Part shown: one piece after another, positions 32,089-44,806 of the stretch
Layout of the letters: each line of letters opens with the position of its first letter
Numbering within the stretch: the stretch's first letter is position 1
From: Saprospiraceae bacterium
GTDB taxonomy: Bacteria; Bacteroidota; Bacteroidia; Chitinophagales; Saprospiraceae
Assembly (NCBI GenBank): GCA_027488855.1
Contig: JAIYAV010000194.1
Span: forward strand, 1-50,380
Length of the DNA stretch: 50,380 nt
Direction of reading: 5' to 3'
Program-made: the position numbers and the translations under genes
Notes under the pieces: generated by a model
Database searches by the model: none
Told to the model about the DNA's origin: nothing
Seen by the model: only the letters and a program-made list of their open reading frames with translations

Positions 32089-32159
32089 GCAGAACCTGAC
32101 ACCAATTAATTGAAATTGCCCAAAATACCCATTACAACCCCTGCAAAAAAAACACCTTC

Positions 32160-32199
32160 GGATTGATTTTGCACAGAAATAACCCATATTTGCCTACCC
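32160..32199 (+). promoter_or_regulatory. candidate AraC-type operator, dioxygenase promoter
   Basis: GGATTGATTTTGC, 15 nt, ATTTGCCTACCC. The same two-part sequence with the same spacing occurs before the TonB receptor (40091-40130) and the MFS gene (43505-43544). Within it, TTTTGCACA and ATTTGCCTA are 21 bp apart, two helical turns, as is usual for AraC-family sites. The right half starts 31 bp upstream of the TACTTTTG -7 box. Confidence 0.75.
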
Positions 32200-32218
32200 A
32201 ATATCCTATCACCAAGCC

Positions 32219-32226
32219 TACTTTTG
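32219..32226 (+). promoter_or_regulatory. -7 box of the catabolic operon
   Basis: TACTTTTG, a full TAnnTTTG match, 39 nt before the ATG at 32266. The open frame upstream of that ATG (to a TTG at 32224) overlaps this box and is therefore unlikely to be translated. Confidence 0.65.
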
Positions 32227-32265
32227 TCGAAATTTAATTCCCTAAATTTCAACTCTGGCAACAAG

Positions 32266-33234
32266 ATGGCTCGAAATCCACATTACTTTTCTCAATTGGC
32301 CCATATAGAAGTACTCAGCACCGATTTGGAGGCTTCCGTACGTTTTTTCACAGAAGTAGCCGGTATGGACGAAACCGGCCGCGAAGACAACTCAGTTTAC
32401 CTCCGCGCCTGGGGTGATTATTTCCACCACTCCCTCAAACTGACCCAAAGTGATCGCCCGGGGATGGGCCACCTGGGCTGGCGGGCCGACAGCCCCGAAG
32501 CACTAGAAGATGTAGTGCAATACCTGGAAAGTATCGGAGCTGGCTTAGGCTGGCACGACGGTGACCTGGGTCATGGCAAGTCTTACCGCTTCAAGTCCCC
32601 TGATGGGCACCTCCACGAAGTGTTTTGGGATGTAGTGTGGCTGCGGGAAGTAGGCAAAAGAGGCAGTGTATTTGCGGATCGCTACGCCAGCAACCGCCGG
32701 ATTGGCGTCAATCCTAGGCGTTTTGACCACATCACTTACAATACCAGCAACTACGCCGCAGAAAAGGCATTCTGGAAAGGTTTGGGCTTGCGCAATCCTG
32801 ATGAAGTACGCATTACGGATGAAATTCCTCCCGTTGGTGGGCTATGGACAACCGGGAACCTTTCTCACGATATTGCCATTTTTACCGATCCTAGTTTGAA
32901 ACCGGGGGAAGGAGCACTGAATCACGTGGCCTATAATTTTGACAGCCGCGAAGAGGTTTTGCTTGCCTGCGACTGGATCATTGAAAACGGCTACAAACTC
33001 GCCATGGGTGCACCCACCCGCCACAAAGCCGACGAAGGCTTTTTCATCTACGTCGACGAGCCGGGTGGCAATCGTTTCGAATTCTACGCAGGCGCCCGCC
33101 TGATTTTTGCCCCCGACCACGGGCCAGATATCCACTACCTGAAAGACAATCCGAACGACGCTTGGGGCAATACCAATCCCTGGGCGGGCGGCGATGGATC
33201 TTTCAAAAAGGAGCACGCTTCAAACAAACATTAA
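32266..33234 (+). CDS. extradiol (VOC-fold) dioxygenase, catechol 2,3-dioxygenase-like
   Basis: 322 aa, two VOC (glyoxalase-fold) modules. The N-terminal module begins LAHIEVLSTDLEASVRFFTEVAGM. The C-terminal module carries the probable Fe(II) ligands of the XylE-type family: His in RRFDHITYN, His in GALNHVAYNFD and Glu in NRFEFYAG. Such enzymes open catechol rings next to the two hydroxyls. The ATG at 32266 is used because the longer frame starts at a TTG inside the -7 box. It is the first gene of a run that continues with a C-C hydrolase, a dehydrogenase, an SDR, a monooxygenase and an FAH-family enzyme. The next gene is 310 bp away, across palindrome D2. Confidence 0.88.
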   Translation: MARNPHYFSQLAHIEVLSTDLEASVRFFTEVAGMDETGREDNSVYLRAWGDYFHHSLKLTQSDRPGMGHLGWRADSPEALEDVVQYLESIGAGLGWHDGDLGHGKSYRFKSPDGHLHEVFWDVVWLREVGKRGSVFADRYASNRRIGVNPRRFDHITYNTSNYAAEKAFWKGLGLRNPDEVRITDEIPPVGGLWTTGNLSHDIAIFTDPSLKPGEGALNHVAYNFDSREEVLLACDWIIENGYKLAMGAPTRHKADEGFFIYVDEPGGNRFEFYAGARLIFAPDHGPDIHYLKDNPNDAWGNTNPWAGGDGSFKKEHASNKH

Positions 33235-33239
33235 TTTGG

Positions 33240-33526
33240 GTTGAGAACATGAGTCATCCCGAATTTTTGAAAAGCCAAAATCGGGCATGAACCTAATCGC
33301 GGAGCGATTGAATTTAGAATAGCCCCGGTCGTCCGGGGTAAATAGTTGGGTCAAATGGGCGGCAACCACGGCAGTGGTTGAACTCAATTGAGCTAAAAGT
33401 TCAACCGCATCCGCGGTTGCGAAACCTTTTGCGACCATAATGACCCCGGACGACCGGGGCTATTCTAAATTCAACCGCATCCGCGGTTTGTTATCCCAAA
33501 AATTCGGGGTGGCTCATGTTCTCAAC
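33240..33526. repeat. nested palindrome, family D (copy 2)
   Basis: Outer arms 33240-33269 and 33497-33526 (GTTGAGAACATGAG ... CCCGAATTTTTG) match at 28 of 30 positions. Middle arms 33310-33339 and 33443-33472 (AATAGCCCCGGTCGTCCGGG type) are exact over 30 bp. Small inner hairpins include AACCAC/GTGGTT and AACCGC/GCGGTT. The middle arms share AATAGCCCCGGTCGTCCG with copy 1 at 10505-10778. The 310-bp gap 33235-33544 is filled by it. Confidence 0.95.
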
Positions 33527-33544
33527 TCCACAACCCTATCAACC

Positions 33545-34657
33545 ATGTGGCACTATTTTCCTGACCAATACATGCCCTCCTATCAGCTGAACCGTGCGCT
33601 GAGTCAAGCCCATTACGGCGGCGGGGAATTTGCGGAATGCCTGGAGGCAGCCGCTGAAATCACCCCTGGCGACAACGAGAGTTTTCACCAGGCTTGGGCT
33701 AAAATTGGCAATAAAGTATACGCTGAAGGCGAAACTGCGCTGGAAAAAGGCAATCGGGTAACTGCTCGTCGGCATTTTTTACGCGCATTCAATTACCTGC
33801 GCACCTCCGAATTTTTCCTCAAACCTTCGGATGAACGCAAGCTGCCGACCTATAAAAAATGTATCCAAGCCTTCCGTACCGCTGTACCCTTGATGGACAA
33901 TGTGCCATTGCAATTCCAGGTTCCATTTGAAAGTTCATACCTACCAGGGTACCTGTTCAAACCAGATCGGGTAGCCAATCCGCCCATGATGATCATGTTT
34001 GGCGGTTTGGACAGTCTGGCTGAGGAGCTATATTTCGGGCCAGCCAACTGGCTCAATGAACGGGGTGTCGCCCTCATGGTGCTCGATGGCCCCGGCCAGG
34101 GTGAAAGCCTGCGCATCAACCACGTTCACTCGCGTTACGACTACAATGTGCCTGCCACCGCTGCTTACGAATGGGCCGTAGAGAATTTGCAAGCTGAAAT
34201 CGACACCACCAGCATTGGGGTAATGGCGGTGAGCATGGGGGGCTATATGGCTGCTCGTTCAGCAGCTTTTGAGCCACGTTTCAAAATATGCGCCATCTGG
34301 GGGGCGGTTTGGTCTTATTACGACATCTGGAAGAACCGGCCTGATAATCACCCTTTAGCCGAAATTGTGATGCACATTGTCGGCGCAGAGAACATGAACG
34401 ATGCCCGGGAACGCCTCAAAAATTTCACATTGGAAGGGGTAGCCGAAAAAATCTCCATGCCGACTTACATTTTGCATGGGGAAGACGATCGGCAGAATTT
34501 TGTCGAAAACGCCTACAAAACCTACGAGGCACTGACCTGCGAAAAATACCTAGAAATAGTACCCAAAGAAAGCAGTGGTTCCGCCCATTGTCAGGTCGAC
34601 AACTTCACCAAAGTATTCAACCTCTACGATTGGATTGCCAAAAAGCTGCACGAATGA
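33545..34657 (+). CDS. alpha/beta hydrolase, probable C-C bond hydrolase (FrsA/DHPON-hydrolase-like)
   Basis: 370 aa from the ATG at 33545. Earlier in-frame starts at 33440 lie inside palindrome D2 and encode repeat-derived residues, so they are rejected. The helical N-terminal cap (1-130) is followed by an alpha/beta hydrolase core. [16 protein letters not shown] forms the oxyanion region, DGPGQGES follows, and the nucleophile elbow is [16 protein letters not shown]. The acid is in LHGEDDRQN, the histidine in GSAHCQVDN. Cap plus core resembles FrsA-like hydrolases and 2,6-dihydroxypseudooxynicotine hydrolase, which breaks a C-C bond in an aromatic ketone. In this operon it probably hydrolyses a ring-cleavage product or a side-chain ketone. 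Its stop overlaps the next start (ATGA). Confidence 0.82.
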
Positions 34658-35928
34658 TCCGCCAACTCAAAAAAGGCATCACCTATGCAGAGAGCCAGGA
34701 TGCTGATGCAAAGGTACGCGCTACTGTGGAAAGCATGTTGAAAGCGGTGTCCGAACGTGGGGACTCGGCTGTGCGGGAATACTCGGCCAATCTGGACAAA
34801 TGGTCGCCAGCAAGTTTCCGCTTGTCCCTCCCTGAAATTGAAAGCATCATCGCTGGTTTGCCACAACAAGTGATCGACGACATCACTTTTGCGCAAACTC
34901 AAATCCGCAATTTTGCCCAACATCAATTGGCTGCCCTCAAAGACATTGAAGTCGAAACCTTGCCTGGGGTATTCCTGGGCCACAAAAATATCCCTGTAAA
35001 CAGTGTAGGTTGTTACATTCCCGGAGGGCGCTACCCCATGGTAGCCTCGGCGCACATGAGTGTGTTGACCGCTAAGGTGGCAGGGGTAAAGCGGGTGATT
35101 GCCTGCACTCCGCCGATCAATGGAGCCATTCCCGCAGCAACCGTTGCCGCCATGCACATGGCTGGCGCGGATGAAATTTACCTGCTTGGTGGTGTACAAG
35201 CGGTGGCCATGATGGCACTGGGAACCGAAACGGTACAAAGTGTAGATATGCTCGTCGGCCCGGGCAATGCCTATGTGGCTGAGGCCAAACGGCAGCTCTA
35301 CGGCAAGGTTGGCATCGATCTTTTTGCTGGCCCAACCGAAACCCTCATCATCGCCGACGATACCTGCGATGTGGAAACCTGCGCGACCGACTTGCTGGGA
35401 CAAGCAGAACATGGGCCTACATCTCCCGCTATTTTGCTCACCACCAGTAAAAGTATTGCCGAAGGCATCGAAGCTGAAATCGAGCGTCAATTGGCAGTAT
35501 TGCCTACTGCCGATGTGGCCGGGGTAGCCTGGCGTGATTATGGGCAAGTTATACTGGTGGATACAGTGGATGAACTGGTGCAGGAAGCCGATCGTATTGC
35601 CAGCGAACACGTGCAGGTCATGACCGAAAACCCAAGGTACTTTTTGGAAAAAATGACCAATTACGGTGGTTTGTTCCTGGGTGAAAAGACAAACGTGGCT
35701 TACGGGGATAAGGTAATCGGCACCAACCACACCCTTCCAACCCGTGAAGCAGCGAAGTATACCGGAGGACTTTGGGTAGGCAAGTTTTTAAAAACCTGCA
35801 CTTATCAGGAGATTCGTACACCAGAGGCGAGTGCTTTGATTGGGGAATATTGTTCGAGGTTGTGCGCCATTGAGAACTTTGCCGGGCATCAGGCGCAGGC
35901 GGATTTGCGGGTGCGGAAGTACAAATAA
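34654..35928 (+). CDS. histidinol-dehydrogenase-family enzyme, probably catabolic
   Basis: 424 aa from the ATG at 34654 (ATGA overlap with the hydrolase gene). HisD-fold residues are kept: [30 protein letters not shown], Zn ligands Gln and His in [11 protein letters not shown], the acid/base pair in [11 protein letters not shown] and [13 protein letters not shown]. The last Zn-ligand His is in [14 protein letters not shown]. HisD performs a four-electron oxidation of an amino alcohol to a carboxylate with NAD. The surrounding genes are not for histidine, and relatives such as HpsN oxidise other alcohols, so the likely substrate is a primary alcohol from the pathway of this cluster. A true biosynthetic hisD cannot be excluded without a phylogeny. 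Confidence 0.82.
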
Positions 35929-35935
35929 ACGACGA

Positions 35936-36060
35936 GGTGTGAAAAAGTGGATTTTTTTGGCGGCTTCGCCGCTTGTTTTTTCACCATCTAAGACATCTAA
36001 GAGACACCTCAGGGGCATTGCTTTCTAAGATGTCCCTTAGATGTCTTAGATGGTTCAATT
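35936..36060. repeat. CTAAGATGT-arm palindrome, family B (copy 4, rearranged)
   Basis: ACCATCTAAGACATCTAAG (about 35982-36000) and CTTAGATGTCTTAGATGGT (about 36036-36054) are exact reverse complements, but in inside-out order relative to the other family B copies. Just upstream, GGCGGCTTCGCCGC between poly-T/A stretches looks like the loop of a second, truncated element. Two elements may have fused here. Confidence 0.85.
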
Positions 36061-36092
36061 ATAAATGCCTAATTGGACAAGTATTTTTGCAA

Positions 36093-36851
36093 ATGGATTT
36101 AACAGGAAAAACAGCATTGGTAAGCGGAGGTGCAGGCGGCATCGGTTCAGCCATTTGCCGTAAATTGGCAATGTGTGGGGCCCAGGTCATTGTCACCTAC
36201 AACAGCAATGCTGCCAAAGCCGAAGCCTTGTTGCAAAGCCTTCCCGGCCAGGGACATTCCTGTTTCCATGCGCCAAATACCGACGCTTCCAAACTGGCTG
36301 AACTGGCTCATTCGATCCAGGAAAAATACGGCAAACTGGACATTTTGGTCAACAACGCGGGCATCACCACTCCCGTAACCCATGCCGATTTGGATGGGCT
36401 CAGTGACGAGTGGATTGACCGCATTTTTCAAACCAATGTGCGGGGTTCCTTTGCCATGATTCGAGTGTGTAAAGACCTTTTATTGGAGGCAGCAAAAGAA
36501 AGCAACTCGTCCAGTTTGGTGGTAAACATCTCCTCGGTCGCTGCGGTAACGGGCATCGGCAGCAATGTGGCCTACTGTGCTTCCAAAGCAGCCATCGACA
36601 GCATGACCCGCTCTTTGGGGCGGGCGTTAGCACCCCAGATTCGGGTGGTTTCGGTATCTCCCGGCTGGGTACTTGGCGAATACAGCCAAAACATTGACCC
36701 AACTTACCTGAAAAAACAAGAAGAACTTACTCCACTAAACCGATTAGCCAATCCTGACGACGTTGCCAACGCGGTACTTGCCTTGGCGACCACCCTAAGC
36801 TTTACTACTGGTTCAATTATTCCGGTAGATGGAGGCAGGGTACTTGGATGA
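36093..36851 (+). CDS. short-chain dehydrogenase/reductase
   Basis: 252 aa from the ATG at 36093; the frame continues upstream through palindrome B4 to a TTG and is rejected. Classical SDR motifs: cofactor loop SGGAGGIGSAICR, LVNNAGITTP, catalytic serine in NISSVAAVTG, and Tyr-x-x-x-Lys in AYCASKAAIDS. The end SFTTGSIIPVDGGRVLG is the usual C-terminus. It is annotated in many genomes as 3-oxoacyl-ACP reductase, but the surroundings point to oxidation or reduction of an alcohol/ketone in the catabolic pathway. Next gene (monooxygenase) begins 28 bp later, probably in the same transcript. Confidence 0.88.
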   Translation: MDLTGKTALVSGGAGGIGSAICRKLAMCGAQVIVTYNSNAAKAEALLQSLPGQGHSCFHAPNTDASKLAELAHSIQEKYGKLDILVNNAGITTPVTHADLDGLSDEWIDRIFQTNVRGSFAMIRVCKDLLLEAAKESNSSSLVVNISSVAAVTGIGSNVAYCASKAAIDSMTRSLGRALAPQIRVVSVSPGWVLGEYSQNIDPTYLKKQEELTPLNRLANPDDVANAVLALATTLSFTTGSIIPVDGGRVLG

Positions 36852-36879
36852 TCAGTTAAAGTGTTCAAAATTCATACCT

Positions 36880-38019
36880 ATGTCAGCAGCAAAAAAAGTA
36901 CTCATCGTAGGCGGCGGAATTGGTGGACTTTCCGCAGGCATTGCCTTGCGCCGGGCCGGCATCGAGGCAGAAATTGTTGAATTACAGACGGAATTCAATG
37001 TATACGGCGTGGGCATCATCCAGCAAGCCAACGCCTTGCGCGCACTTGATGCGCTGGGTGTGGCCGATGAAGCCATGCGTAGAGGATCACCTTATGGCAA
37101 AGTCAAATTGTGTGCCCCGCATGGTTTTCAATTTGGCGAAACGGGCACTCCCCCCATTGGTCGTTTCCCCAGCCACAATGGCATTTCCCGGAAAATTTTG
37201 CACGATGTGCTCTATGAAGCTGCGCTGGAAAACGGCGTGGCATTCCGCATGGGCATCACCGTTGAACACATCGACAACCAACCTGATCAAGTTGTGGTTC
37301 AATTCACCGACGGCAGTTCTGGTACTTACGACTTATTGATCGGTGCCGACGGGGTCAACTCCAAAGTGCGGAGTTTGATTTTCGGACAATTTGCGCCCAA
37401 GTACATCAATGCCTCGGTGTGGCGCTACGCCTTCCCACGTCCGGCAGGCCTGGAAACGGGCTACATGTATTTTGGTAAAAAAACCAAATTGGGTTTGATC
37501 CCGATGACTGCGGATACCATCTACATGTTTGTGGTTTCTTCGGAAGGGGAAGACAATCCCTTCATTCCCGAAGAAGAATTGGTGCCTCGTTTAAAAGGCT
37601 ATTTGGAAGAATACAGTGCTCCGTTTGTACAAGAAGTTTTGCCCCAAATCACCGATCCCAAAGGGGTCATTTACCGCCCCCTGGAAACCTTGATGACGCC
37701 CGCCCCTTGGTACAAAGATCGGGTGGTTTTGATTGGGGATTCCGCCCACGCGACCATTCCACAGCTGGGTTCTGGCGCGGCATTGGCCATTGAGGATGCC
37801 GTGGTACTGGCAGAATTGTTGCAAAAAGAGAGTGCCATGGCCAGCGTATTGGAGCAATACATGGAGCGGCGGTACGAACGTTGCAAATTGGTGGTGGATG
37901 TGTCCAATACCCTCTCCGAATGGGAACAAATGGAATGGAAGGGGTTACCGCTGCCCGAGGGCGCCAACATGGGGGCTTTGATGGGCAAAACATTGATGGC
38001 CTTGACGCAACCGATTTGA
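36880..38019 (+). CDS. FAD-dependent aromatic monooxygenase
   Basis: 379 aa. A group A flavin monooxygenase (PHBH/salicylate-hydroxylase/HpxO type). The FAD dinucleotide fold is KVLIVGGGIGGLSAGIALRRAG at the N-terminus, with the conserved DG motif YDLLIGADGVNSKVR. The second FAD-binding GD motif is VVLIGDSAHATIPQLGSGAALAIEDA. There is no membrane or signal segment. It should hydroxylate an aromatic acid or phenol with NAD(P)H and O2, giving the dihydroxylated ring that the dioxygenase can open. The ATG at 36880 is chosen over upstream in-frame codons because it directly precedes the FAD fold. Confidence 0.9.
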   Translation: MSAAKKVLIVGGGIGGLSAGIALRRAGIEAEIVELQTEFNVYGVGIIQQANALRALDALGVADEAMRRGSPYGKVKLCAPHGFQFGETGTPPIGRFPSHNGISRKILHDVLYEAALENGVAFRMGITVEHIDNQPDQVVVQFTDGSSGTYDLLIGADGVNSKVRSLIFGQFAPKYINASVWRYAFPRPAGLETGYMYFGKKTKLGLIPMTADTIYMFVVSSEGEDNPFIPEEELVPRLKGYLEEYSAPFVQEVLPQITDPKGVIYRPLETLMTPAPWYKDRVVLIGDSAHATIPQLGSGAALAIEDAVVLAELLQKESAMASVLEQYMERRYERCKLVVDVSNTLSEWEQMEWKGLPLPEGANMGALMGKTLMALTQPI

Positions 38020-38080
38020 TTGATTTGAACCTACAAAAAATAATTAATTCTTGATACTTGCTAACGCCTTAAATGCTTAG

Positions 38081-38192
38081 TTTCTAAGGTGTTCTAAGGT
38101 GCCTAAGGTGGTTCAATTTAAAACGCTTTGGTGTTTCAAAATCATGTTAGATTTTTATTGAACCACCTTAGGCACCTTAGAACACCTTAGTT
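38081..38192. repeat. CTAAGGTG-arm palindrome, family B (copy 5)
   Basis: TTTCTAAGGTGTTCTAAGGT with GCCTAAGGTGGTTCAA on the left, TTGAACCACCTTAGGC and matching units on the right, nearly perfect over about 35 bp per arm. It separates the monooxygenase and FAH-family genes. Confidence 0.95.
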
Positions 38193-38246
38193 ATAACGCA
38201 TCTTCGATGCTCAGGAGTAAAAGGATTAATACATCCCTACAATCAC

Positions 38247-39158
38247 ATGAAACTTGTAACATTCAAAAATAAAAGCGGGCAAATCCGCAGTGGTTGGCTC
38301 AATGGCGACGGCGTAGTTGACATGCAGTTGGCCGATGCTCAGTTGCCCAGCGACATGCTCAGCTTCATTGACGAACACGAGCGTTTTTTTGCCCTGATTG
38401 AGGAAAAAGGCCTGAAAAACCTGGCCGCCCACTACCCTTTATCCGAAGTTCAACTCCTCGCTCCCCTACCCAACCCCCGCAGTTTTCGGGATTACATCGG
38501 GTTTGAGCAACACATGTTGAATGCTTCCAAGACTTTTGGCCACACGGTAGGCCAAGCCTGGTACGAAATGCCCATTTTTTACTTCACCAATCACCACGCC
38601 ATTTACGGCCCCAATGACGACATCAAACGCCCGGCCAAGGAAACCCGCCTTGACATTGAGTTGGAAATGGCGGTGATCATGGGCAAAAAAGGCAAAAACA
38701 TCAGCGCCGCCGAAGCAAATGACTACATCTTCGGGTACACTGTTTTTAACGACTGGACTGCCCGTGCCATCCAACGCCGCGAAATGGAAGTACCCCTTGG
38801 CCCGCACAAAGGCAAGGATTTTGCCAACGCCATTGGCCCATGCATTGTGACCAAAGACGAAATGGAGCAATACCGGGTGGACAATGATCGCTTCGATTTG
38901 GCCATGACTGCCCGCATCAATGGTGCAAGCATTTGTGAAGGCAACTACCAAACCGTGTACTGGACCTTCCCACAAATGATCGAACGCGCTTCCGAAAATG
39001 ATGTAACTTTATTACCGGGTGAAATCCTGGGCTCTGGCACCGTGGGTTGGGGCAGCTTGATTGAGAACAACTTTTCGGTGCATCGCCCGCTGGAACCCGG
39101 CGATGTGGTGGAATTGGAAATCCAGGGAATTGGAATTTTGCGTAACCAAGTGGTCTAA
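38247..39158 (+). CDS. fumarylacetoacetate hydrolase family protein
   Basis: 303 aa. The N-terminal part (1-70) is the small FAH cap; the C-terminal part is the catalytic beta-roll. Metal ligands are in DIELEMAVIMGKKG (E-x-E) and FNDWTARAIQRREM (Asp). Also present are GPHKGKDFANAIGPCIV and the closing LLPGEILGSGTVGWGS. Members act as FAA hydrolases, acylpyruvate hydrolases or 2-hydroxyhepta-2,4-dienedioate isomerases. In this cluster it probably handles the product of ring cleavage. Start ATG at 38247; the AraC-family regulator starts 3 bp after its stop, so the two are surely cotranscribed. Confidence 0.9.
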   Translation: MKLVTFKNKSGQIRSGWLNGDGVVDMQLADAQLPSDMLSFIDEHERFFALIEEKGLKNLAAHYPLSEVQLLAPLPNPRSFRDYIGFEQHMLNASKTFGHTVGQAWYEMPIFYFTNHHAIYGPNDDIKRPAKETRLDIELEMAVIMGKKGKNISAAEANDYIFGYTVFNDWTARAIQRREMEVPLGPHKGKDFANAIGPCIVTKDEMEQYRVDNDRFDLAMTARINGASICEGNYQTVYWTFPQMIERASENDVTLLPGEILGSGTVGWGSLIENNFSVHRPLEPGDVVELEIQGIGILRNQVV

Positions 39159-39161
39159 ACC

Positions 39162-40076
39162 ATGGTCAACAAAAACAAAGAATGGCAAGCGACTTTATTG
39201 GATCCAACGGCCTTGGGTAAATTCCTGAGTCCCGAGCAGGGTTGGGAGCAACAAATCCTGACCCCCTTGCACCCTTGGTTCCAAATCAACCGCATAGAGG
39301 TGTTTCGACCTTACCTCAAGTTCCCCTTGGCACCCCATCGCAAAACGGTATACGATTTTTTGTTCCTGACCGCTGGAAGTACTACCCGCAACAAAGGCAT
39401 TGACAACTACACCCTTGGTCCCAACACTTTTTTCTTTTTGCCCGCTTATCAAATTCTGACCAGCGAGGCCATGAGTGAAGATGTACAGGGGTATTATTGC
39501 CATTTTGATCCTGAGATTTTTAACAAAAAATTCATCCAAAGTGACTTATTCAACGAGTTCAACTTCTTGAAATACAATGGACATCCAATAGTAACGATCA
39601 GTGATGAAGCATTGCCCAAAGTTAAATACCTGCTGAATCGCCTGGGTGAGGAATACGGCACCGGGCGCAAAGAGTCCCTGGATTTGATTCGCTCCTACCT
39701 GCTCACCCTGTTTTATGAGTTGCGGCGTTTTAGTCAACATGAAGACATCAGCTCCAACGACTCAGCCGCACAACTGACCCAACGTTACAAAGAGGCGCTA
39801 CCCCAACAGGTCTACACTTTTCAAAAAGTATCCGATTTTGCCAAGTTTTTGAACGTATCCCCCAATTACCTCAACCGCTGCGTACAGCGCACCATGGGTA
39901 AATCCGCCCACGATTTATTGAATGAAACCATGCTGTTGGAGTCTAAGGCCTTGCTCAAACAATCGGCGCTCAGTATCAGTGAAATAGCCTATAAGGTGGG
40001 TAAAAAAGACCCCAGCGATTTCAGCCGGTTTTTTAAAGCACAAACGGGGATGACGCCCAAGGAGTACCGGGAGTAA
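39162..40076 (+). CDS. AraC-family transcriptional regulator
   Basis: 304 aa. The N-terminal half is a cupin-like sensing domain (for example KTVYDFLFLTAGSTTRNKG and YTLGPNTFFFLPAYQI). The C-terminal 100 residues are the double helix-turn-helix, with VSDFAKFLNVSPNYLNRCVQRTMGKSAHDLLNE and ALSISEIAYKVGKKDPSDFSRFFKAQTGMTPKEYRE. It is cotranscribed with the FAH-family gene and lies directly upstream of the TonB receptor gene. The three repeated bipartite sites at 32160, 40091 and 43505 are its probable operators, so it likely activates uptake, transport and catabolic genes, including its own operon, when it binds a pathway compound. Confidence 0.92.
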   Translation: MVNKNKEWQATLLDPTALGKFLSPEQGWEQQILTPLHPWFQINRIEVFRPYLKFPLAPHRKTVYDFLFLTAGSTTRNKGIDNYTLGPNTFFFLPAYQILTSEAMSEDVQGYYCHFDPEIFNKKFIQSDLFNEFNFLKYNGHPIVTISDEALPKVKYLLNRLGEEYGTGRKESLDLIRSYLLTLFYELRRFSQHEDISSNDSAAQLTQRYKEALPQQVYTFQKVSDFAKFLNVSPNYLNRCVQRTMGKSAHDLLNETMLLESKALLKQSALSISEIAYKVGKKDPSDFSRFFKAQTGMTPKEYRE

Positions 40077-40090
40077 GCCCATAGCCTTTA

Positions 40091-40130
40091 GGATTGATTT
40101 TGCCTATTCTTGACCTTTTTTTGCCTAACT
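40091..40130 (+). promoter_or_regulatory. candidate AraC-type operator, TonB receptor promoter
   Basis: GGATTGATTTTGC, 15 nt, TTTTGCCTAACT; the left half is identical to that at 32160. TTTTGCCTA occurs exactly twice here, at 40098 and 40119, 21 bp apart. A -7-like TAATTTTA lies at 40149-40156, 30 bp after the start of the right half. Confidence 0.75.
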
Positions 40131-40210
40131 CACCTTTTTACCATCAATTAATTTTACCTCAACGCATTTTGTAAAATTTTATATCGCAATTCTCTAACAG
40201 CACCCTTTTT

Positions 40211-43036
40211 ATGAACCTACATCAGACGAAAGCCTGGGCAGTAGCCACGCTTATTGCCCTTGGTATGTGCTTTGCCAACTTTAGCCTAAGTGGCCAAAGC
40301 ATCAGCGGAAAAGTAACCGATTCGAATAATGAGCCACTCATCGGCGCTTCGGTGCTCGTCAAAGGGACTACCCTAGGAACGGTTACCGACATCTCCGGCC
40401 AATTTACCCTCGACAATGTTCCTACTTCCAGCACCCTGGTCATCTCTTTTGTGGGTTTTGCCAGCAAAGAAATTGCTGCAGCCAACAATCTGGTCATTGT
40501 ACTGAATGAGGGGGGAGCCCTCGATGAGGTGGTGGTAACCGGGGTATTCGATGCCCGAACTAAAATGAATGCCTCTGTAGCGATTAGTTCGCTCAGCTCG
40601 AAACAACTGGAAAAAATGGTACCCAATAGTGCCATTGACGTCTTGAAAAACATGCCCGGAGTATACGTGAATACAGCTAGAGGTGAAGTGGGCAACTCAA
40701 TTTATACCCGTGGGCTCAACTATAGCGGTGGCTTTTTCTACGTTTCCATGCAGGAAGATGGTCTGCCCGTGATGGGTATTTCAGGTTTGGTCAACCCGGA
40801 TGGTTACCTTCGGGCGGATGCGACTATCCATCGAGTGGAAGCAGTACGGGGCGGCACCGCCTCTATTTTAGGCCCGAATGCTCCTGGAGGAATTTTTAAC
40901 TACGTTTCCAAAACGGGTGGCCAAACGTTTGAAGGCGAAATCCGTGCCCGCTTTGGTCTGGAAGGCGATGGCCAAAATCCTTACTACCGTGCCGACCTGA
41001 ACGTAGGTGGGCCCCTCAACAAAGCCAAAGATTTGACCTTCAACATTGGTGGCTTTTACCGCAATGCCGATGGCCCGAAATACCCCGGCTACACCCTGAG
41101 CTACGGCGGGCAGCTCAAAGCCAATTTGCTCAAAAAATACAAAACAGGTTCGCTAAAATTGTATGCCAAACTGCTGGATGACAATACCGCCCCCTTTGAA
41201 TTCACCCCAACGGTTGATTTTGAAAAGCCAAAACCCGCCGGTAGTTTCACCAATACCAGTTCCACCCTGGTGCAGTCCCAACAGTTCACCGTGCCTGGCT
41301 CGATCACCGCAGGAAAAACCCTGGAGTACGATACCCGTAAAGTGGGTGCTTACAATGAAGTGGCCGGAGGCCTACAATGGGAACAACGATTGGGATCAGG
41401 CTGGACCTTCAACAACAACCTCCGGGTTTCCAGCAAAGAGCACATCGCCCAAACGACCGCGGTAGTCTTTCCTTTCCGGGTGGATCAAATCGTTTTTTAC
41501 GGTGTGAGTGGCAACGTGGCTCGCTTCGGTACCTATGAATTTTACGATCCTAGTTCCAATAAAAGTTACGGCACGGTACAACAACTTCCTCCTACTGGTG
41601 CGGGGCAACCAATCCGTTTTATCCCCAACAATTTGAGCTTACCGGGTGGCAATGTGTTGCCCAATGCGCTGTTTTACAACCCAAATCCTTACAACGAAGT
41701 CAACTTTACCGACATCATCGACCAGGCTACTTTGAGCAAGAAGTTCAAAAACATGAGTTTCACTGCTGGGATGTATTACGCTTCAACCAAGGCAACTCGT
41801 GAAAACCTCATTCCAACTGCCCAGGGTTTTGCTACCGTGGAGGATCGCCCCAAAACGGTAGGCATTCGATACACCAACCTCGGCGGTCAAAAATTCGACC
41901 TAACCAACCCAACAGGTTTGGCCAATATCGGTGCCAGTGGTTTTTACACCAACGATGCCCGCATCAATCAGACCGCTTTTTTCCTGGGACACAACTGGGA
42001 AATCAGCAACAAATTGAACCTGGACTGGGGCTTGCGCTACGAGAACTTTGCCATCAACTCCACTTTCACCACGCCACGCCGCATCCTGCCGGATAGCCCA
42101 ACCGGGGCCGACGGCAATGCTGCTACTTTATACGACAACCGCCAGTGGACCATCAACCCGGAGCAAAGTTTTGAAAAAGACTTGCCGTCGGTTTCCTACT
42201 CCGTTGGGATGAATTACTTGGCCAACGAAAACTTCGCCGTCTATGGCCGTTACTCCCAGGGCCGCAAGTCGCCCGACCTGAGCTACTTCATGGACATTGC
42301 CAACCAGCAGCTGACTTCCAGCATTTCGGTAGAGGCGCAAAGTGTTCAAATGGCAGAATTGGGTTTCAAATTCAAGCAGGAGCGGTTTAATCTTTTCGTG
42401 ACACCGTTTTACACCTTGTTGAGCAATGTGCCCAACTTCCAGATTTTCCAAAATCCAGACGTGACCTACTATGCGCCGCCACGGGTTTATCAGAAAATTC
42501 GGACCATGGGCCTGGAACTGGAAGGCAATCTCGCCTTAAGCGACAACTTCAACATTAGGGGTGTAGCCACCTTCCAAAATTCAAATGCGCTGGAATTTTC
42601 GGTCTTCCTGGCCAACGCCAATGGCCCGCAGGATGACGTAAAAGTTTCCTACGATGGCAACAAAAACGACAACATTGGCACCATGCTGATGATCACACCA
42701 AGCTACAACAGTAAAAAATTCAGCGCTGCGCTCAACTACCAGTACATGGGCAAACGTTGGGCAAACGTGGGGAATGCTTTTCAATTGCCTGCTTTCAGTG
42801 CCCTTGATCTTAATTTGGGGTACAACTTTTCGGCCAAATTCCAACTGAGTGCCTCCGTCAACAACTTGGCAAACACCTATGGAATTATGAGTTGGGCAGC
42901 ACCAGGAGGTTTCCCTGCGGCATTGGATACTCAGGGCTTTACCACAAGCATGTTGGAAGGCAATCCAAACGCGGTGTATGCCACCCTGTCCATCATGCCC
43001 CGGGCTTATTTCTTGACGGCAACGTACAAGTTCTAA
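40211..43036 (+). CDS. TonB-dependent receptor
   Basis: 941 aa with a signal peptide (residues 1-29, ending SLSGQ). Residues about 30-110 are a CarboxypepD-like domain (ISGKVTDSNNEPLIGASVLVKGTTLGTVTD). Next are a short segment EVVVTG, the plug (about 120-240, with RGGTASILGPNAPGGIFNYVSKTGG) and a long barrel ending in the aromatic strand ATYKF. The plug resembles those of siderophore-type receptors more than SusC proteins, and there is no SusD. It should import the cluster's substrate, possibly a phenolic or catecholic compound, using TonB energy. A candidate AraC operator lies upstream; a hairpin terminator follows. Confidence 0.93.
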   Translation: MNLHQTKAWAVATLIALGMCFANFSLSGQSISGKVTDSNNEPLIGASVLVKGTTLGTVTDISGQFTLDNVPTSSTLVISFVGFASKEIAAANNLVIVLNEGGALDEVVVTGVFDARTKMNASVAISSLSSKQLEKMVPNSAIDVLKNMPGVYVNTARGEVGNSIYTRGLNYSGGFFYVSMQEDGLPVMGISGLVNPDGYLRADATIHRVEAVRGGTASILGPNAPGGIFNYVSKTGGQTFEGEIRARFGLEGDGQNPYYRADLNVGGPLNKAKDLTFNIGGFYRNADGPKYPGYTLSYGGQLKANLLKKYKTGSLKLYAKLLDDNTAPFEFTPTVDFEKPKPAGSFTNTSSTLVQSQQFTVPGSITAGKTLEYDTRKVGAYNEVAGGLQWEQRLGSGWTFNNNLRVSSKEHIAQTTAVVFPFRVDQIVFYGVSGNVARFGTYEFYDPSSNKSYGTVQQLPPTGAGQPIRFIPNNLSLPGGNVLPNALFYNPNPYNEVNFTDIIDQATLSKKFKNMSFTAGMYYASTKATRENLIPTAQGFATVEDRPKTVGIRYTNLGGQKFDLTNPTGLANIGASGFYTNDARINQTAFFLGHNWEISNKLNLDWGLRYENFAINSTFTTPRRILPDSPTGADGNAATLYDNRQWTINPEQSFEKDLPSVSYSVGMNYLANENFAVYGRYSQGRKSPDLSYFMDIANQQLTSSISVEAQSVQMAELGFKFKQERFNLFVTPFYTLLSNVPNFQIFQNPDVTYYAPPRVYQKIRTMGLELEGNLALSDNFNIRGVATFQNSNALEFSVFLANANGPQDDVKVSYDGNKNDNIGTMLMITPSYNSKKFSAALNYQYMGKRWANVGNAFQLPAFSALDLNLGYNFSAKFQLSASVNNLANTYGIMSWAAPGGFPAALDTQGFTTSMLEGNPNAVYATLSIMPRAYFLTATYKF

Positions 43037-43066
43037 ATTTCATACAATTCAATTTTTCTGCTAGAG

Positions 43067-43098
43067 AGAGAGGGGCGAATGTTCCTCTCTTTTTTTAT
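43067..43098 (+). terminator. rho-independent terminator after the TonB receptor gene
   Basis: AGAGAGG (43067-43073), loop, CCTCTCT (43084-43090), then a T-rich run. It separates the receptor gene from the Dabb gene. Confidence 0.8.
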
Positions 43099-43155
43099 TT
43101 TTGGGAAAAAGCTAAACTGTATAAAACCAAATCTGCTGCACATTAAACCAAAACA

Positions 43156-43458
43156 ATGCAAAAAAACATTCGACATTCGGTGATTTTCAAATTTAAGGAT
43201 GGGGTCAGTCCAAGTGATGAAACGGCGTTTTTTAATGCTGCCAAAGAACTGGCCAAAATTCAAGGTGTACAACATTTTGAACTATTGAAACAAACCAGTA
43301 AAAAGAACCCCTATGCCTATGGCATTTCCATGGAGTTCGCTACTCAAGTCTTATATGAGCAATACAATAATCATCCAGCCCATACCCAGTTTATCCAAAA
43401 CCACTGGTTGAAACAGGTTGCTGATTTTTTGGAAATAGATTATGAGGGAATGGAATAG
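43156..43458 (+). CDS. Dabb (stress-responsive A/B barrel) domain protein
   Basis: A 100-aa single-domain Dabb protein: IRHSVIFKFKDGVSPSDETAFFNAAKELAKI, then GVQHFELLKQTSKKNPYAYGISMEF and YNNHPAHTQFIQNHW. Members are dimeric ferredoxin-like alpha+beta barrels and often appear in catabolic clusters, sometimes as cyclases or decarboxylases; most are uncharacterised. It has its own possible -7 (TATTTTTG at 43096-43103, overlapping the terminator tail) and precedes the MFS gene. Confidence 0.87.
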   Translation: MQKNIRHSVIFKFKDGVSPSDETAFFNAAKELAKIQGVQHFELLKQTSKKNPYAYGISMEFATQVLYEQYNNHPAHTQFIQNHWLKQVADFLEIDYEGME

Positions 43459-43504
43459 CCACGAATCCTGAAGCAATGCAAAACCAGTAAGCAAATTAGG
43501 GCCA

Positions 43505-43544
43505 GGATTGAAATTGCATAGGTTTGGTAGCAAAATGGCTACCC
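43505..43544 (+). promoter_or_regulatory. candidate AraC-type operator, MFS promoter
   Basis: GGATTGAAATTGC, 15 nt, AAATGGCTACCC. The left half matches the other two sites at 11 of 13 positions, the right half matches 32188 at 9 to 10 of 12, and the spacing is the same. A -7-like TATTTTGA lies at 43563, 30 bp after the start of the right half. Confidence 0.65.
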
Positions 43545-43600
43545 TAACGGCATGAAAATGAGTATTTTGAGACCCTATCGGTTCCTTAAACATCACCTAC

Positions 43601-44806
43601 ATGCAGATTAACAAACACTCGGATTATCGATCCATCCTTACCTTGTCCTTCGGCTTCATGCTGCTCAACCTGGACAGGTGGATCATTGCGCCCCTTTTCC
43701 CCGTCATCCAAAAAGATTTGGGCTTCAATTACCAGGATTTAGGCGCAGTGGTGGGCGTAACGGCCCTGGCCTGGGGTCTGGTTTCCCTCATTTTTGGCGG
43801 CTTGTCGGACAAATTGGGCCGCCGGAAAATATTGATTCCGACCTTGGCGGCCTTGTCCATTTTTTCGGGCATCACGGGATTGGCTTCGGGTTTGGGCACC
43901 ATGCTGCTGCTCCGAGGAGTATTGGGCATTTTTGAGGGCGCGTACGTTCCAACGGCATTTGCAGCCGTAAAAGACGCTTCGGTTCCCCATCGGGTGGGTT
44001 TCAACATGGGTTTGTTGGGTGCAGGCAGTGGGTTGGCAACGGCGATTGCCCCCATTCTGGCGACCCAGCTCTTGTCTGCCGTTCCTTCCTGGCATTGGGT
44101 TTTTGTATGGGTATCTATTCCTGGATTGATTGTGACCTTTTTGTTGTATCGTTTCATCAAGGATCAGCCCCAGCTTGAAAATCTCCCGGCAAAAAACATC
44201 AACATCAAAGCCGTTTTTAAATACCGCAACATCAAAGTAGGAACCCTAGTCATGTGTGGGGTGATGGCAGCTATTTTTGTACTGACCGCCATGATGCCCA
44301 ATTATTTGACCGATTACCTCCATTTAAGCCTGCAACAAATGGGCTTTGTGGCTTCGGCCATCGGGATCGGTGGCTTTTTAGGCATTCCCTTGGTCAATGG
44401 TTTGTCGGATCGTTTGGGACGAAAGCCTGTGATTATTGGGGCGCTGGTAGCTGCGGCGCTGGCGATTGTCCTATTATCCAATATCGGAGCCAATCCCCCC
44501 GCGCTGTTTGTCATCCTGTTTTTCACCAGCGCTTTTATTTTGGGCAGCCTGGTCATGTTGGACGGCCCGATTGCTACCGAAACGGTTCCTCCTTCGATGA
44601 TCAGTGCGGCATCCGGGTTGATCATTGGGATTGGAGAAATTTTTGGGGGCGGCGTAGCGCCGGTGATTTCGGGGATCGTAGCAGAAAAATATGGGATTGA
44701 GCAGGTACTGATGGTCGCGCTGGTTGGGGTGATTTTTGCGATTGGGTGTGCCTTCTTTTTGGTAGAAACGGCTCCTGGGAAAGCAAAAGTAAAGGAGTCT
44801 ACTTGA
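43601..44806 (+). CDS. MFS transporter
   Basis: 401 aa, about 12 membrane segments. Motif A-like loops occur in both halves: GGLSDKLGRRKIL (about residue 66) and NGLSDRLGRKPVI (about 266). The N-terminal LNLDRWIIAPLFPVIQKDLG is like that of anion:cation symporter and aromatic-acid transporters. It probably carries the cluster's substrate or an intermediate across the inner membrane. It has a likely AraC operator in its 142-bp upstream gap and is followed by a palindrome (44855-44895). Confidence 0.92.
   Translation: MQINKHSDYRSILTLSFGFMLLNLDRWIIAPLFPVIQKDLGFNYQDLGAVVGVTALAWGLVSLIFGGLSDKLGRRKILIPTLAALSIFSGITGLASGLGTMLLLRGVLGIFEGAYVPTAFAAVKDASVPHRVGFNMGLLGAGSGLATAIAPILATQLLSAVPSWHWVFVWVSIPGLIVTFLLYRFIKDQPQLENLPAKNINIKAVFKYRNIKVGTLVMCGVMAAIFVLTAMMPNYLTDYLHLSLQQMGFVASAIGIGGFLGIPLVNGLSDRLGRKPVIIGALVAAALAIVLLSNIGANPPALFVILFFTSAFILGSLVMLDGPIATETVPPSMISAASGLIIGIGEIFGGGVAPVISGIVAEKYGIEQVLMVALVGVIFAIGCAFFLVETAPGKAKVKEST

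What the first reader, a model, noticed from the sequence alone, without database searches (positions are those of the whole stretch)
32160..43544. Three promoters share one bipartite site with fixed spacing: a likely AraC regulon
Seen directly: GGATTGATTTTGC-N15-ATTTGCCTACCC at 32160, GGATTGATTTTGC-N15-TTTTGCCTAACT at 40091, GGATTGAAATTGC-N15-AAATGGCTACCC at 43505. They lie before the dioxygenase, the TonB receptor and the MFS gene. In each case a TAnnTTTG-like box starts 30-31 bp after the right half (32219, 40149, 43563). At the first two sites TTTGC-type half-sites are 21 bp apart, the usual spacing for AraC-family proteins. Inference: the AraC protein at 39162-40076 binds these sites and activates all three units, including its own operon. 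A further lone half-site-like ATTGAAATTGC stands at 32109.
Basis: partly seen in the sequence, partly recalled or inferred. Interest (0 to 1): 0.85.

Follow-up and report, generated by a model that had tools for sequence, protein, structure and literature searches.

The report
AraC-type switch for plant-phenolic breakdown
Three genes in this bacterium are preceded by the same two-part DNA switch, and the same switch sits before matching genes in related bacteria, so one regulator probably turns on a whole pathway that may break down plant phenolic compounds.

Summary
GGATTGAWWTTGC-N15-WWWTGSCTAMCY occurs three times in the window; without its last three columns it matches nowhere else in the 8.37-Mb genome. 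It is a direct repeat with a 21-bp pitch, ending 18-19 bp before a TAnnTTTG-like -7 box.

The AraC-regulon reading is well supported by comparison, untested by experiment. A matrix made only from the three window sites finds the site before the dioxygenase in 23 of 39 Bacteroidota loci (p<=0.01) and 0 of 14 Bacilli loci. Of 58 distinct hits, 48 carry the box, which the matrix did not use, at the predicted offset. Of 11 distinct araC-to-TonB-receptor gaps outside the genus 10 hold the site. An AraC homologue of 40% identity or more is present in 20 of 23 non-Bacilli genomes looked up and 0 of 3 Bacilli.

So: an AraC/RhaR-type regulon spread through Bacteroidota, a new member of a known kind. 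In relatives the site also precedes GH106 and GH1 genes, which suggests flavonoid-glycoside catabolism (inferred). Exceptions: one close relative lost the right half; similar sites lie beside distant AraC paralogues; the lone half-site is kept only within the genus.

The parts
32160..32199 (+). Site 1: bipartite direct-repeat operator before the dioxygenase operon (left half about 32161-32175, right half about 32182-32198)
   Evidence: Exact match; aligned in G001 and G004; found before the dioxygenase in 23 of 39 Bacteroidota loci
32219..32226 (+). TAnnTTTG -7 box of promoter 1 (TACTTTTG)
   Evidence: Read; a box at offset 58 or 59 in 48 of 58 distinct hits in relatives
40091..40130 (+). Site 2: operator between araC and the TonB-dependent receptor
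   Evidence: Exact match; same place in 10 of 11 distinct araC-receptor gaps outside the genus; right half lost in G001
40149..40156 (+). -7 box-like TAATTTTA of promoter 2 (5 of 6)
   Evidence: Read
43505..43544 (+). Site 3: operator before the MFS transporter
   Evidence: Exact match; equivalent sites before MFS in G004 and G001
43563..43570 (+). Weak -7 box-like TATTTTGA of promoter 3 (4 of 6)
   Evidence: Read
32266..33234 (+). VOC-type extradiol ring-cleavage dioxygenase (below the curated catechol 2,3-dioxygenase cut-off)
   Evidence: Pfam PF00903; NCBIfam TIGR03211 233.9 of 320.2 bits
33440..34657 (+). alpha/beta hydrolase; nearest solved relative 2,6-dihydroxy-pseudo-oxynicotine hydrolase
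   Evidence: 2jbw, E 1.3e-25
34654..35928 (+). histidinol-dehydrogenase-family enzyme (start chosen by eye)
   Evidence: Pfam PF00815
36093..36851 (+). SDR oxidoreductase (start chosen by eye)
   Evidence: Pfam PF13561
36880..38019 (+). FAD-dependent aromatic-type monooxygenase (start chosen by eye)
   Evidence: Pfam PF01494; NCBIfam NF005313 above its cut-off
38247..39158 (+). FAA-hydrolase-family enzyme
   Evidence: Pfam PF01557
39162..40076 (+). AraC-family regulator: cupin-type regulatory domain plus double HTH; proposed binder of the three sites
   Evidence: Pfam PF12833 and PF00165; model pLDDT 88.7; regulatory-domain fold matches RhaR and AraC
40211..43036 (+). TonB-dependent receptor with CarboxypepD_reg-like N-terminus
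43156..43458 (+). Dabb-domain protein
43601..44806 (+). MFS transporter

Best explanation
The three sites are operators of the cupin-type, AraC/RhaR-like protein encoded at 39162-40076. Shown by sequence: each site is a direct repeat with a pitch of 21 bp (two helical turns), placed so that its downstream half lies at about -42 to -32 if the TAnnTTTG box is at -12 to -5; the same arrangement recurs before orthologous genes across Bacteroidota. Inferred: an effector, probably a plant phenolic or an intermediate of its breakdown, makes the AraC dimer fill both half-sites; the promoter-proximal subunit stands where the -33 element would be and recruits sigma-A RNA polymerase. This turns on (1) the ring-cleavage operon, probably including araC itself (positive feedback), (2) the TonB receptor with the Dabb gene, and (3) the MFS transporter. 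In relatives the same kind of site also precedes a GH106 rhamnosidase, GH1 glycosidases and, on a Hymenobacter plasmid, a receptor-GH43-hydrolase run, so the likely substrate class is glycosylated flavonoids or similar phenolics.
For: Exact sites, 0 in shuffles, only here in the genome. Window-only matrix: 23 of 39 Bacteroidota dioxygenase regions at p<=0.01, all 99-153 bp before the start; 0 of 14 Bacilli (lowest p 0.154). At score 13 or more: 44 and 17 hits in 47 cluster loci and 30 araC loci against 8 and 0 in the reversed sequences; 48 of 58 distinct hits have a TAnnTTTG-like box at offset 58 (35) or 59 (13), with 0-3 at every other offset from 40 to 99. Column self-similarity is highest at a shift of 21, no comparable inverted symmetry. 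20 genomes: 41 hits with 21-bp pitch and 1 in the reversed control, 5 with 22-bp pitch. AraC homologue of 40% or more in 16 of 16 cluster genomes, in 4 of 7 further non-Bacilli genomes and 0 of 3 Bacilli. Cupin plus AraC HTH model.
Against: No binding or expression data. In G001 site 2 keeps only its left half. L135 lacks a site between araC and receptor. In 16 of 39 Bacteroidota loci the matrix did not reach p<=0.01 before the dioxygenase; in some another gene stands directly upstream. Six of 20 cluster genomes had no hit to the phylum pattern. The window matrix also gave 4 hits of 13 or more in the 15 Bacilli loci. Site-like elements lie beside AraC paralogues of 25-34% identity (L059 in G002, L177, L028, L008), so the site alone does not name the protein. 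G681 (2.2-Mb MAG, L107) has a dioxygenase site but no AraC match.
Confidence: 0.85

Rival explanations
1. A different AraC-family paralogue (or several) binds the sites; the locus AraC is one of a group sharing the same recognition sequence.
For: Sites of similar form next to AraC genes only 25-34% identical; several 42-51% homologues in single genomes such as G668, G665 and G683.
Against: In the window's genome the next match to the locus protein is 29% identical, and its 3.75-kb neighbourhood (L023) gave no hit. In relatives the sites go with the cluster and with araC-receptor gaps.
Confidence: 0.1
2. The repeated block is an extended core-promoter variant (for example an unusual -33 region), not a regulator site.
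For: Fixed distance to the -7 box.
Against: It reaches to about -70, is a direct repeat of 21 bp and is absent from the rest of the genome.
Confidence: 0.03
3. The sites are copies spread by recent duplication or recombination within the cluster and say little about function.
For: Sites 2 and 3 flank the receptor-Dabb block; in G004 that block is absent and araC runs straight into a site-3-like site.
Against: The bases between halves differ between sites while the half-sites are kept, and distant genera keep the same positions.
Confidence: 0.02

Closest known systems
AraC-type hybrid two-component regulons of Bacteroides thetaiotaomicron (PMC3878776; passages and section 8 read)
   Same: Direct repeats averaging 21 bp, read there as dimers with monomers on one face of the DNA two helix turns apart; AraC-type HTH; operons for uptake and breakdown
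   Different: Those are hybrid proteins with periplasmic sensor, kinase and receiver domains for glycans; this one is a 304-aa protein without them, on a ring-cleavage pathway
E. coli AraC and RhaR (fold hits; their DNA mechanism is recalled)
   Same: Cupin-type regulatory domain and double HTH; tandem half-sites next to the promoter (recalled)
   Different: 11-14% identity over the aligned regulatory domain; TAnnTTTG promoter; effector unknown
fde (Herbaspirillum) and ifc (Variovorax) flavonoid A-ring pathways (PMC11069340 and PMC8552027; passages read)
   Same: FAD monooxygenase, glyoxalase-type ring dioxygenase, and in ifc an alpha/beta hydrolase resembling 2,6-dihydroxypseudooxynicotine hydrolase
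   Different: fde is controlled by FdeR (LysR-type, recalled), not AraC; no sequence comparison with FdeC or FdeE was made here; the window cluster also has HDH-like, SDR, FAA-hydrolase-family and TonB-receptor genes
HpaA, 4-hydroxyphenylacetate regulator
   Same: Best NCBIfam hit of the AraC protein
   Different: 73.5 bits against a cut-off of 274.65: not a member

Membership tests
AraC/XylS family | C-terminal double HTH (HTH_18, HTH_AraC) above curated cut-off | tested here: met
   74.4 and 61.6 bits against 33.6 and 26.6
AraC/XylS family | Cupin-like N-terminal regulatory domain (AraC/RhaR subgroup) | tested here: met
   Model pLDDT 88.7 with N-terminal beta-strands; Foldseek TMt 0.75 to the RhaR and 0.67 to the AraC regulatory domain; no Pfam N-terminal family was hit
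AraC/XylS family | Tandem half-sites about two helical turns apart at the promoter | tested here: met
   21-bp peak, fixed offset to the -7 box
AraC/XylS family | Effector-dependent dimer binding and activation | not testable with these tools
   Needs gel shift, footprint or reporter
Hybrid two-component AraC-type regulators | Periplasmic sensor, kinase and receiver domains | tested here: not met
   304 aa, only HTH families found
HpaA equivalog | NCBIfam TIGR02297 cut-off | tested here: not met
   73.5 of 274.65 bits
Catechol 2,3-dioxygenase equivalog | NCBIfam TIGR03211 cut-off | tested here: not met
   233.9 of 320.2 bits
Flavonoid A-ring (fde/ifc) pathway | FAD monooxygenase, glyoxalase-type dioxygenase and DHPON-hydrolase-like hydrolase in one cluster | tested here: met
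   at family level only, against the description
Flavonoid A-ring (fde/ifc) pathway | Close homology to FdeC and FdeE, and activity on flavonoids | not tested
   No FdeC or FdeE sequence was compared; activity needs assays

The most novel reading that the evidence does not exclude
Bacteroidota carry a widespread flavonoid-glycoside utilisation system, a counterpart of polysaccharide utilisation loci for plant phenolics: one cupin AraC protein and one 40-bp operator co-ordinate deglycosylation (GH106, GH1, GH43), uptake (TonB receptor, MFS) and A-ring meta-cleavage, sometimes on plasmids.
Probability: 0.4. Interest if true: 0.65.

Novelty: new member of a known kind. Interest (0 to 1): 0.45.

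Why it matters
A recognisable operator gives a way to find all genes of this pathway across Bacteroidota, predicts transcription starts, and points to a testable substrate class. It also gives a set of presumably activator-dependent promoters with the phylum's own -7 box, useful for asking how activators stand in for a weak -33 element. That aromatic catabolism and its control are little described in this phylum is my recollection; the few paper searches made here showed no description of this regulon in their listings.

Tried and rejected
Lone half-site at 32109: TTGAAATTGCCC is invariant in G000, G001 and G004, but the left half-site matrix scores it 3.9 against 20.5 for site 1, and only 2 of 48 relatives have an upstream half-site above 9, at different distances (17 and 78). 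Not counted as part of the operator.

Pattern slips of mine: the patterns had one extra T, so they asked for a 22-bp pitch. One search is kept only as a spacing control (5 hits in 20 genomes; the five were not annotated). One search gave one hit, in G001 (L184), overlapping the end of an ORF on the other strand. One search repeats correctly: 2 hits in 5 genomes, both in the window.

First spectrum of TTTGCMTA repeats over spacings: clear in the window (21 bp), weak over the relatives with two mismatches in total (10 at 21 bp, but 14 at 24 and 12 at 30), since the half-site used was too specific to the window. Replaced by matrices.

HpaA, catechol 2,3-dioxygenase and hybrid two-component membership rejected on tested features. 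The Rhizobium plasmid dioxygenase neighbourhood looks like another meta-cleavage pathway (4-oxalomesaconate type) and was dropped.

Left out before counts: one search left out the window's genus, L057 and loci without a dioxygenase match; one search left out L074, L085 and the window's genus. Loci are not all independent (L078 and L109 share a genome, L095 and L124 a MAG, several genera occur more than once). One search counted only receptors whose match begins before residue 60 and lies within 1.5 kb of araC: this left out G001 (match from residue 87), whose site is broken, and G467 (receptor about 4 kb away), whose receptor does have a site. L154 and L170 repeat L078 and were removed from the 13 gaps to give 11. 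Of the 41 hits, 11 were not held as loci and not annotated. For one search I gave 16 loci, for 20, of the cluster loci held. In one search the script took the longest ORF starting within 600 bp of the site, not strictly the first gene, and misjudged the strand of L193.

A claim that this is not in print would rest only (listings of the held open-access library) and is weak.

Full report
WHAT WAS CHECKED. The three sites are exactly as described, at 32160, 40091 and 43505, each with 15 bases between halves. Shuffled windows gave no match in 100 tries. The window is contig G000:C218 of an 8,365,988-base genome; the record of its near relative L074 is titled Saprospiraceae bacterium. The pattern without its last three columns, gap 13-17, hits only these three places. 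With up to 3 mismatches in the full pattern this genome has two further hits, both inside ORFs; reversed-pattern control 0. In the four other genomes of the genus the same search gives G001 2, G002 3, G003 1 and G004 2 hits.

ANATOMY. Thirty-one sites picked from the window and relatives give TGATTGATTTTGmATAgT...nGCC...TTTTGmYTmAC followed by TAnnTTTG. In the 48 relatives' hits chosen by the window-only matrix and having a box, column 11 is G in 48, column 5 in 46, column 32 in 46, column 22 in 35 and column 1 in 28 (these columns are part of the matrix, so their conservation is partly by selection). G1/G22 and TTG 9-11/30-32 are 21 bp apart; column self-similarity is highest at a shift of 21 (0.176; next 0.143 at 27 and 0.101 at 10), and inverted symmetry is low (at most 0.074). 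If the TAnnTTTG box covers -12 to -5 (PMC9723704, passages), the downstream half covers about -42 to -32.

COMPARATIVE TEST. Only the three window sites were used to build the matrix. Upstream of the dioxygenase it reaches p<=0.01 in 23 of 39 Bacteroidota loci (22 at the floor of 0.005 set by 200 shuffles), all 99-153 bp before the start, and in 0 of 14 Bacilli loci carrying homologous enzymes, where the lowest p is 0.154. Five further Bacteroidota loci (L079, L082, L083, L086, L136) have a site-like stretch 100-101 bp before the start with p 0.070-0.114. Over 47 cluster loci and 30 araC loci, a score of 13 or more gives 44 and 17 hits against 8 and 0 in the reversed sequences, and 4 in the 15 Bacilli loci. 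Of 58 distinct hits, 48 have at least 5 of 6 TAnnTTTG positions at offset 58 or 59; every other offset from 40 to 99 has 0-3. The box was not part of the matrix, so this is an independent check. Some loci come from closely related species and are not fully independent.

POSITION RELATIVE TO araC. Where a TonB receptor follows araC on the same strand within 1.5 kb, the gap holds the site in 12 of 13 cases, 10 of 11 after removing duplicates; L135 is the exception. G001, where the site is broken, fell outside the filter; with it the count is 10 of 12. In several Flavobacteriia the site starts within a few bases of the end of araC, and in G004 the end of araC runs into the site.

LINK TO THE AraC PROTEIN. 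A match at E<=3e-69 (40-52% identity) exists in 16 of the 16 cluster genomes that I gave. Of ten more genomes, G467, G598 (partial, 43%), G682 and G683 have it; G457 (29% only; only the FAA-hydrolase gene of the cluster was seen there), G680 (a 1.9-Mb MAG titled Alphaproteobacteria) and G681 (a 2.2-Mb MAG) do not; three Bacilli have none. In 396 genomes drawn from the order, with five candidates scored per genome, only G000, G004 and G397 have a match better than 1e-60, and all three carry the cluster. Thirty-nine homologues of 38% identity or more align with invariant residues in both domains. The AlphaFold2 model (pLDDT 88.7, pTM 0.86) has N-terminal beta-strands and a C-terminal helical HTH region. 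Foldseek ranks full-length ToxT, CsvR and Rns first by E-value (TM about 0.4), and among regulatory domains alone RhaR (TMt 0.75) and AraC (0.67). AraC binding is still inference.

GENOME-WIDE USE IN RELATIVES. In 20 cluster genomes the phylum consensus with the correct pitch gives 41 hits in 14 genomes with up to 3 mismatches, and 1 reversed-control hit; a pattern with 22-bp pitch gives 5. Of the 30 hits held as loci, the longest ORF starting within 600 bp downstream is a homologue of the dioxygenase in 8, the TonB receptor in 9, the HDH-like enzyme in 2 and the MFS protein in 1. Three more precede a GH106 rhamnosidase (L201, directly behind araC), a GH1 glycosidase (L215) and a CoA-transferase (L206); one each precede PEPCK, a protein with sigma-70 region 4, and a zinc alcohol dehydrogenase; four have no clear gene.

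SUBSTRATE. Window enzymes: VOC dioxygenase, alpha/beta hydrolase nearest to 2,6-dihydroxy-pseudo-oxynicotine hydrolase, HDH-like, SDR, FAD monooxygenase, FAA-hydrolase family. The Variovorax isoflavone cluster is described with the same three core kinds (PMC11069340, passages). On the Hymenobacter monticola plasmid one site precedes a run hypothetical-GH1-dioxygenase-hydrolase-hisD-SDR-FAA-ABM-cyclase-monooxygenase, with pca genes next to it, and another precedes receptor-GH43-alpha/beta hydrolase-glycosyl hydrolase. On the Emticicia plasmid a site (30-odd bits with the 31-site matrix, 11.4 with the window-only matrix) lies about 560 bp before the dioxygenase. A glycosylated flavonoid or similar phenolic is therefore the best guess; it is inference, the window itself has no glycosidase in the regulon, and no direct comparison with FdeC was made.

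RESULTS AGAINST. G001: the left half behind araC is intact, the right half is replaced, and its receptor is only 69% identical. Site-like elements lie beside AraC paralogues of 25-34% identity (L059, L028, L008, L177); G002 has no close orthologue, so its site is either a relic or read by another AraC protein. Window site 3 has the weakest -7 box and does not reach the phylum pattern within 3 mismatches. Sixteen of 39 dioxygenase regions and 6 of 20 genomes gave no clear hit. The lone half-site has support only inside the genus.

VERDICT. Observation confirmed, interpretation supported. It is a new member of the AraC-type regulon kind already known in Bacteroides for hybrid two-component systems with 21-bp direct repeats (PMC3878776, section 8). 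What is added is the operator, its conservation across genera with a fixed promoter offset, and a regulon that joins uptake, ring cleavage and, in relatives, glycosidases.

Noticed in passing
L074:11842-11900 (G004): The receptor-Dabb block is absent; the end of araC runs directly into a site-3-like operator before the MFS gene.
   Followed up: partly
L137:1290-4110 and 4200-5180 (G001): The receptor is only 69% identical, site 2 keeps only its left half, and a different gene (by eye) stands where the Dabb gene is in the window.
   Followed up: partly
L059:5827-5866 (G002): A strong site with a -7 box follows an AraC gene 25% identical to the window's and precedes a small ORF that looks like an ABM/Dabb-type protein and a cyclase-like gene (both by eye), in a genome without a close AraC orthologue.
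   Followed up: partly
L222 (NZ_CP094535.1) and L223 (NC_018749.1): The cluster lies on plasmids of Hymenobacter monticola and Emticicia oligotrophica, with glycosidases and, in the first, protocatechuate genes.
   Followed up: yes
L116-L134 (15 Bacilli loci): Neobacillus and relatives carry homologous dioxygenase, hydrolase, FAA-hydrolase, monooxygenase and MFS genes; no site before the dioxygenase in the 14 regions tested, and no AraC match in the three genomes searched.
   Followed up: partly
L192: A site directly behind araC in Emticicia aquatica precedes a gene for a protein with sigma-70 region 4 (ECF-like by eye), suggesting a second regulatory layer.
   Followed up: no
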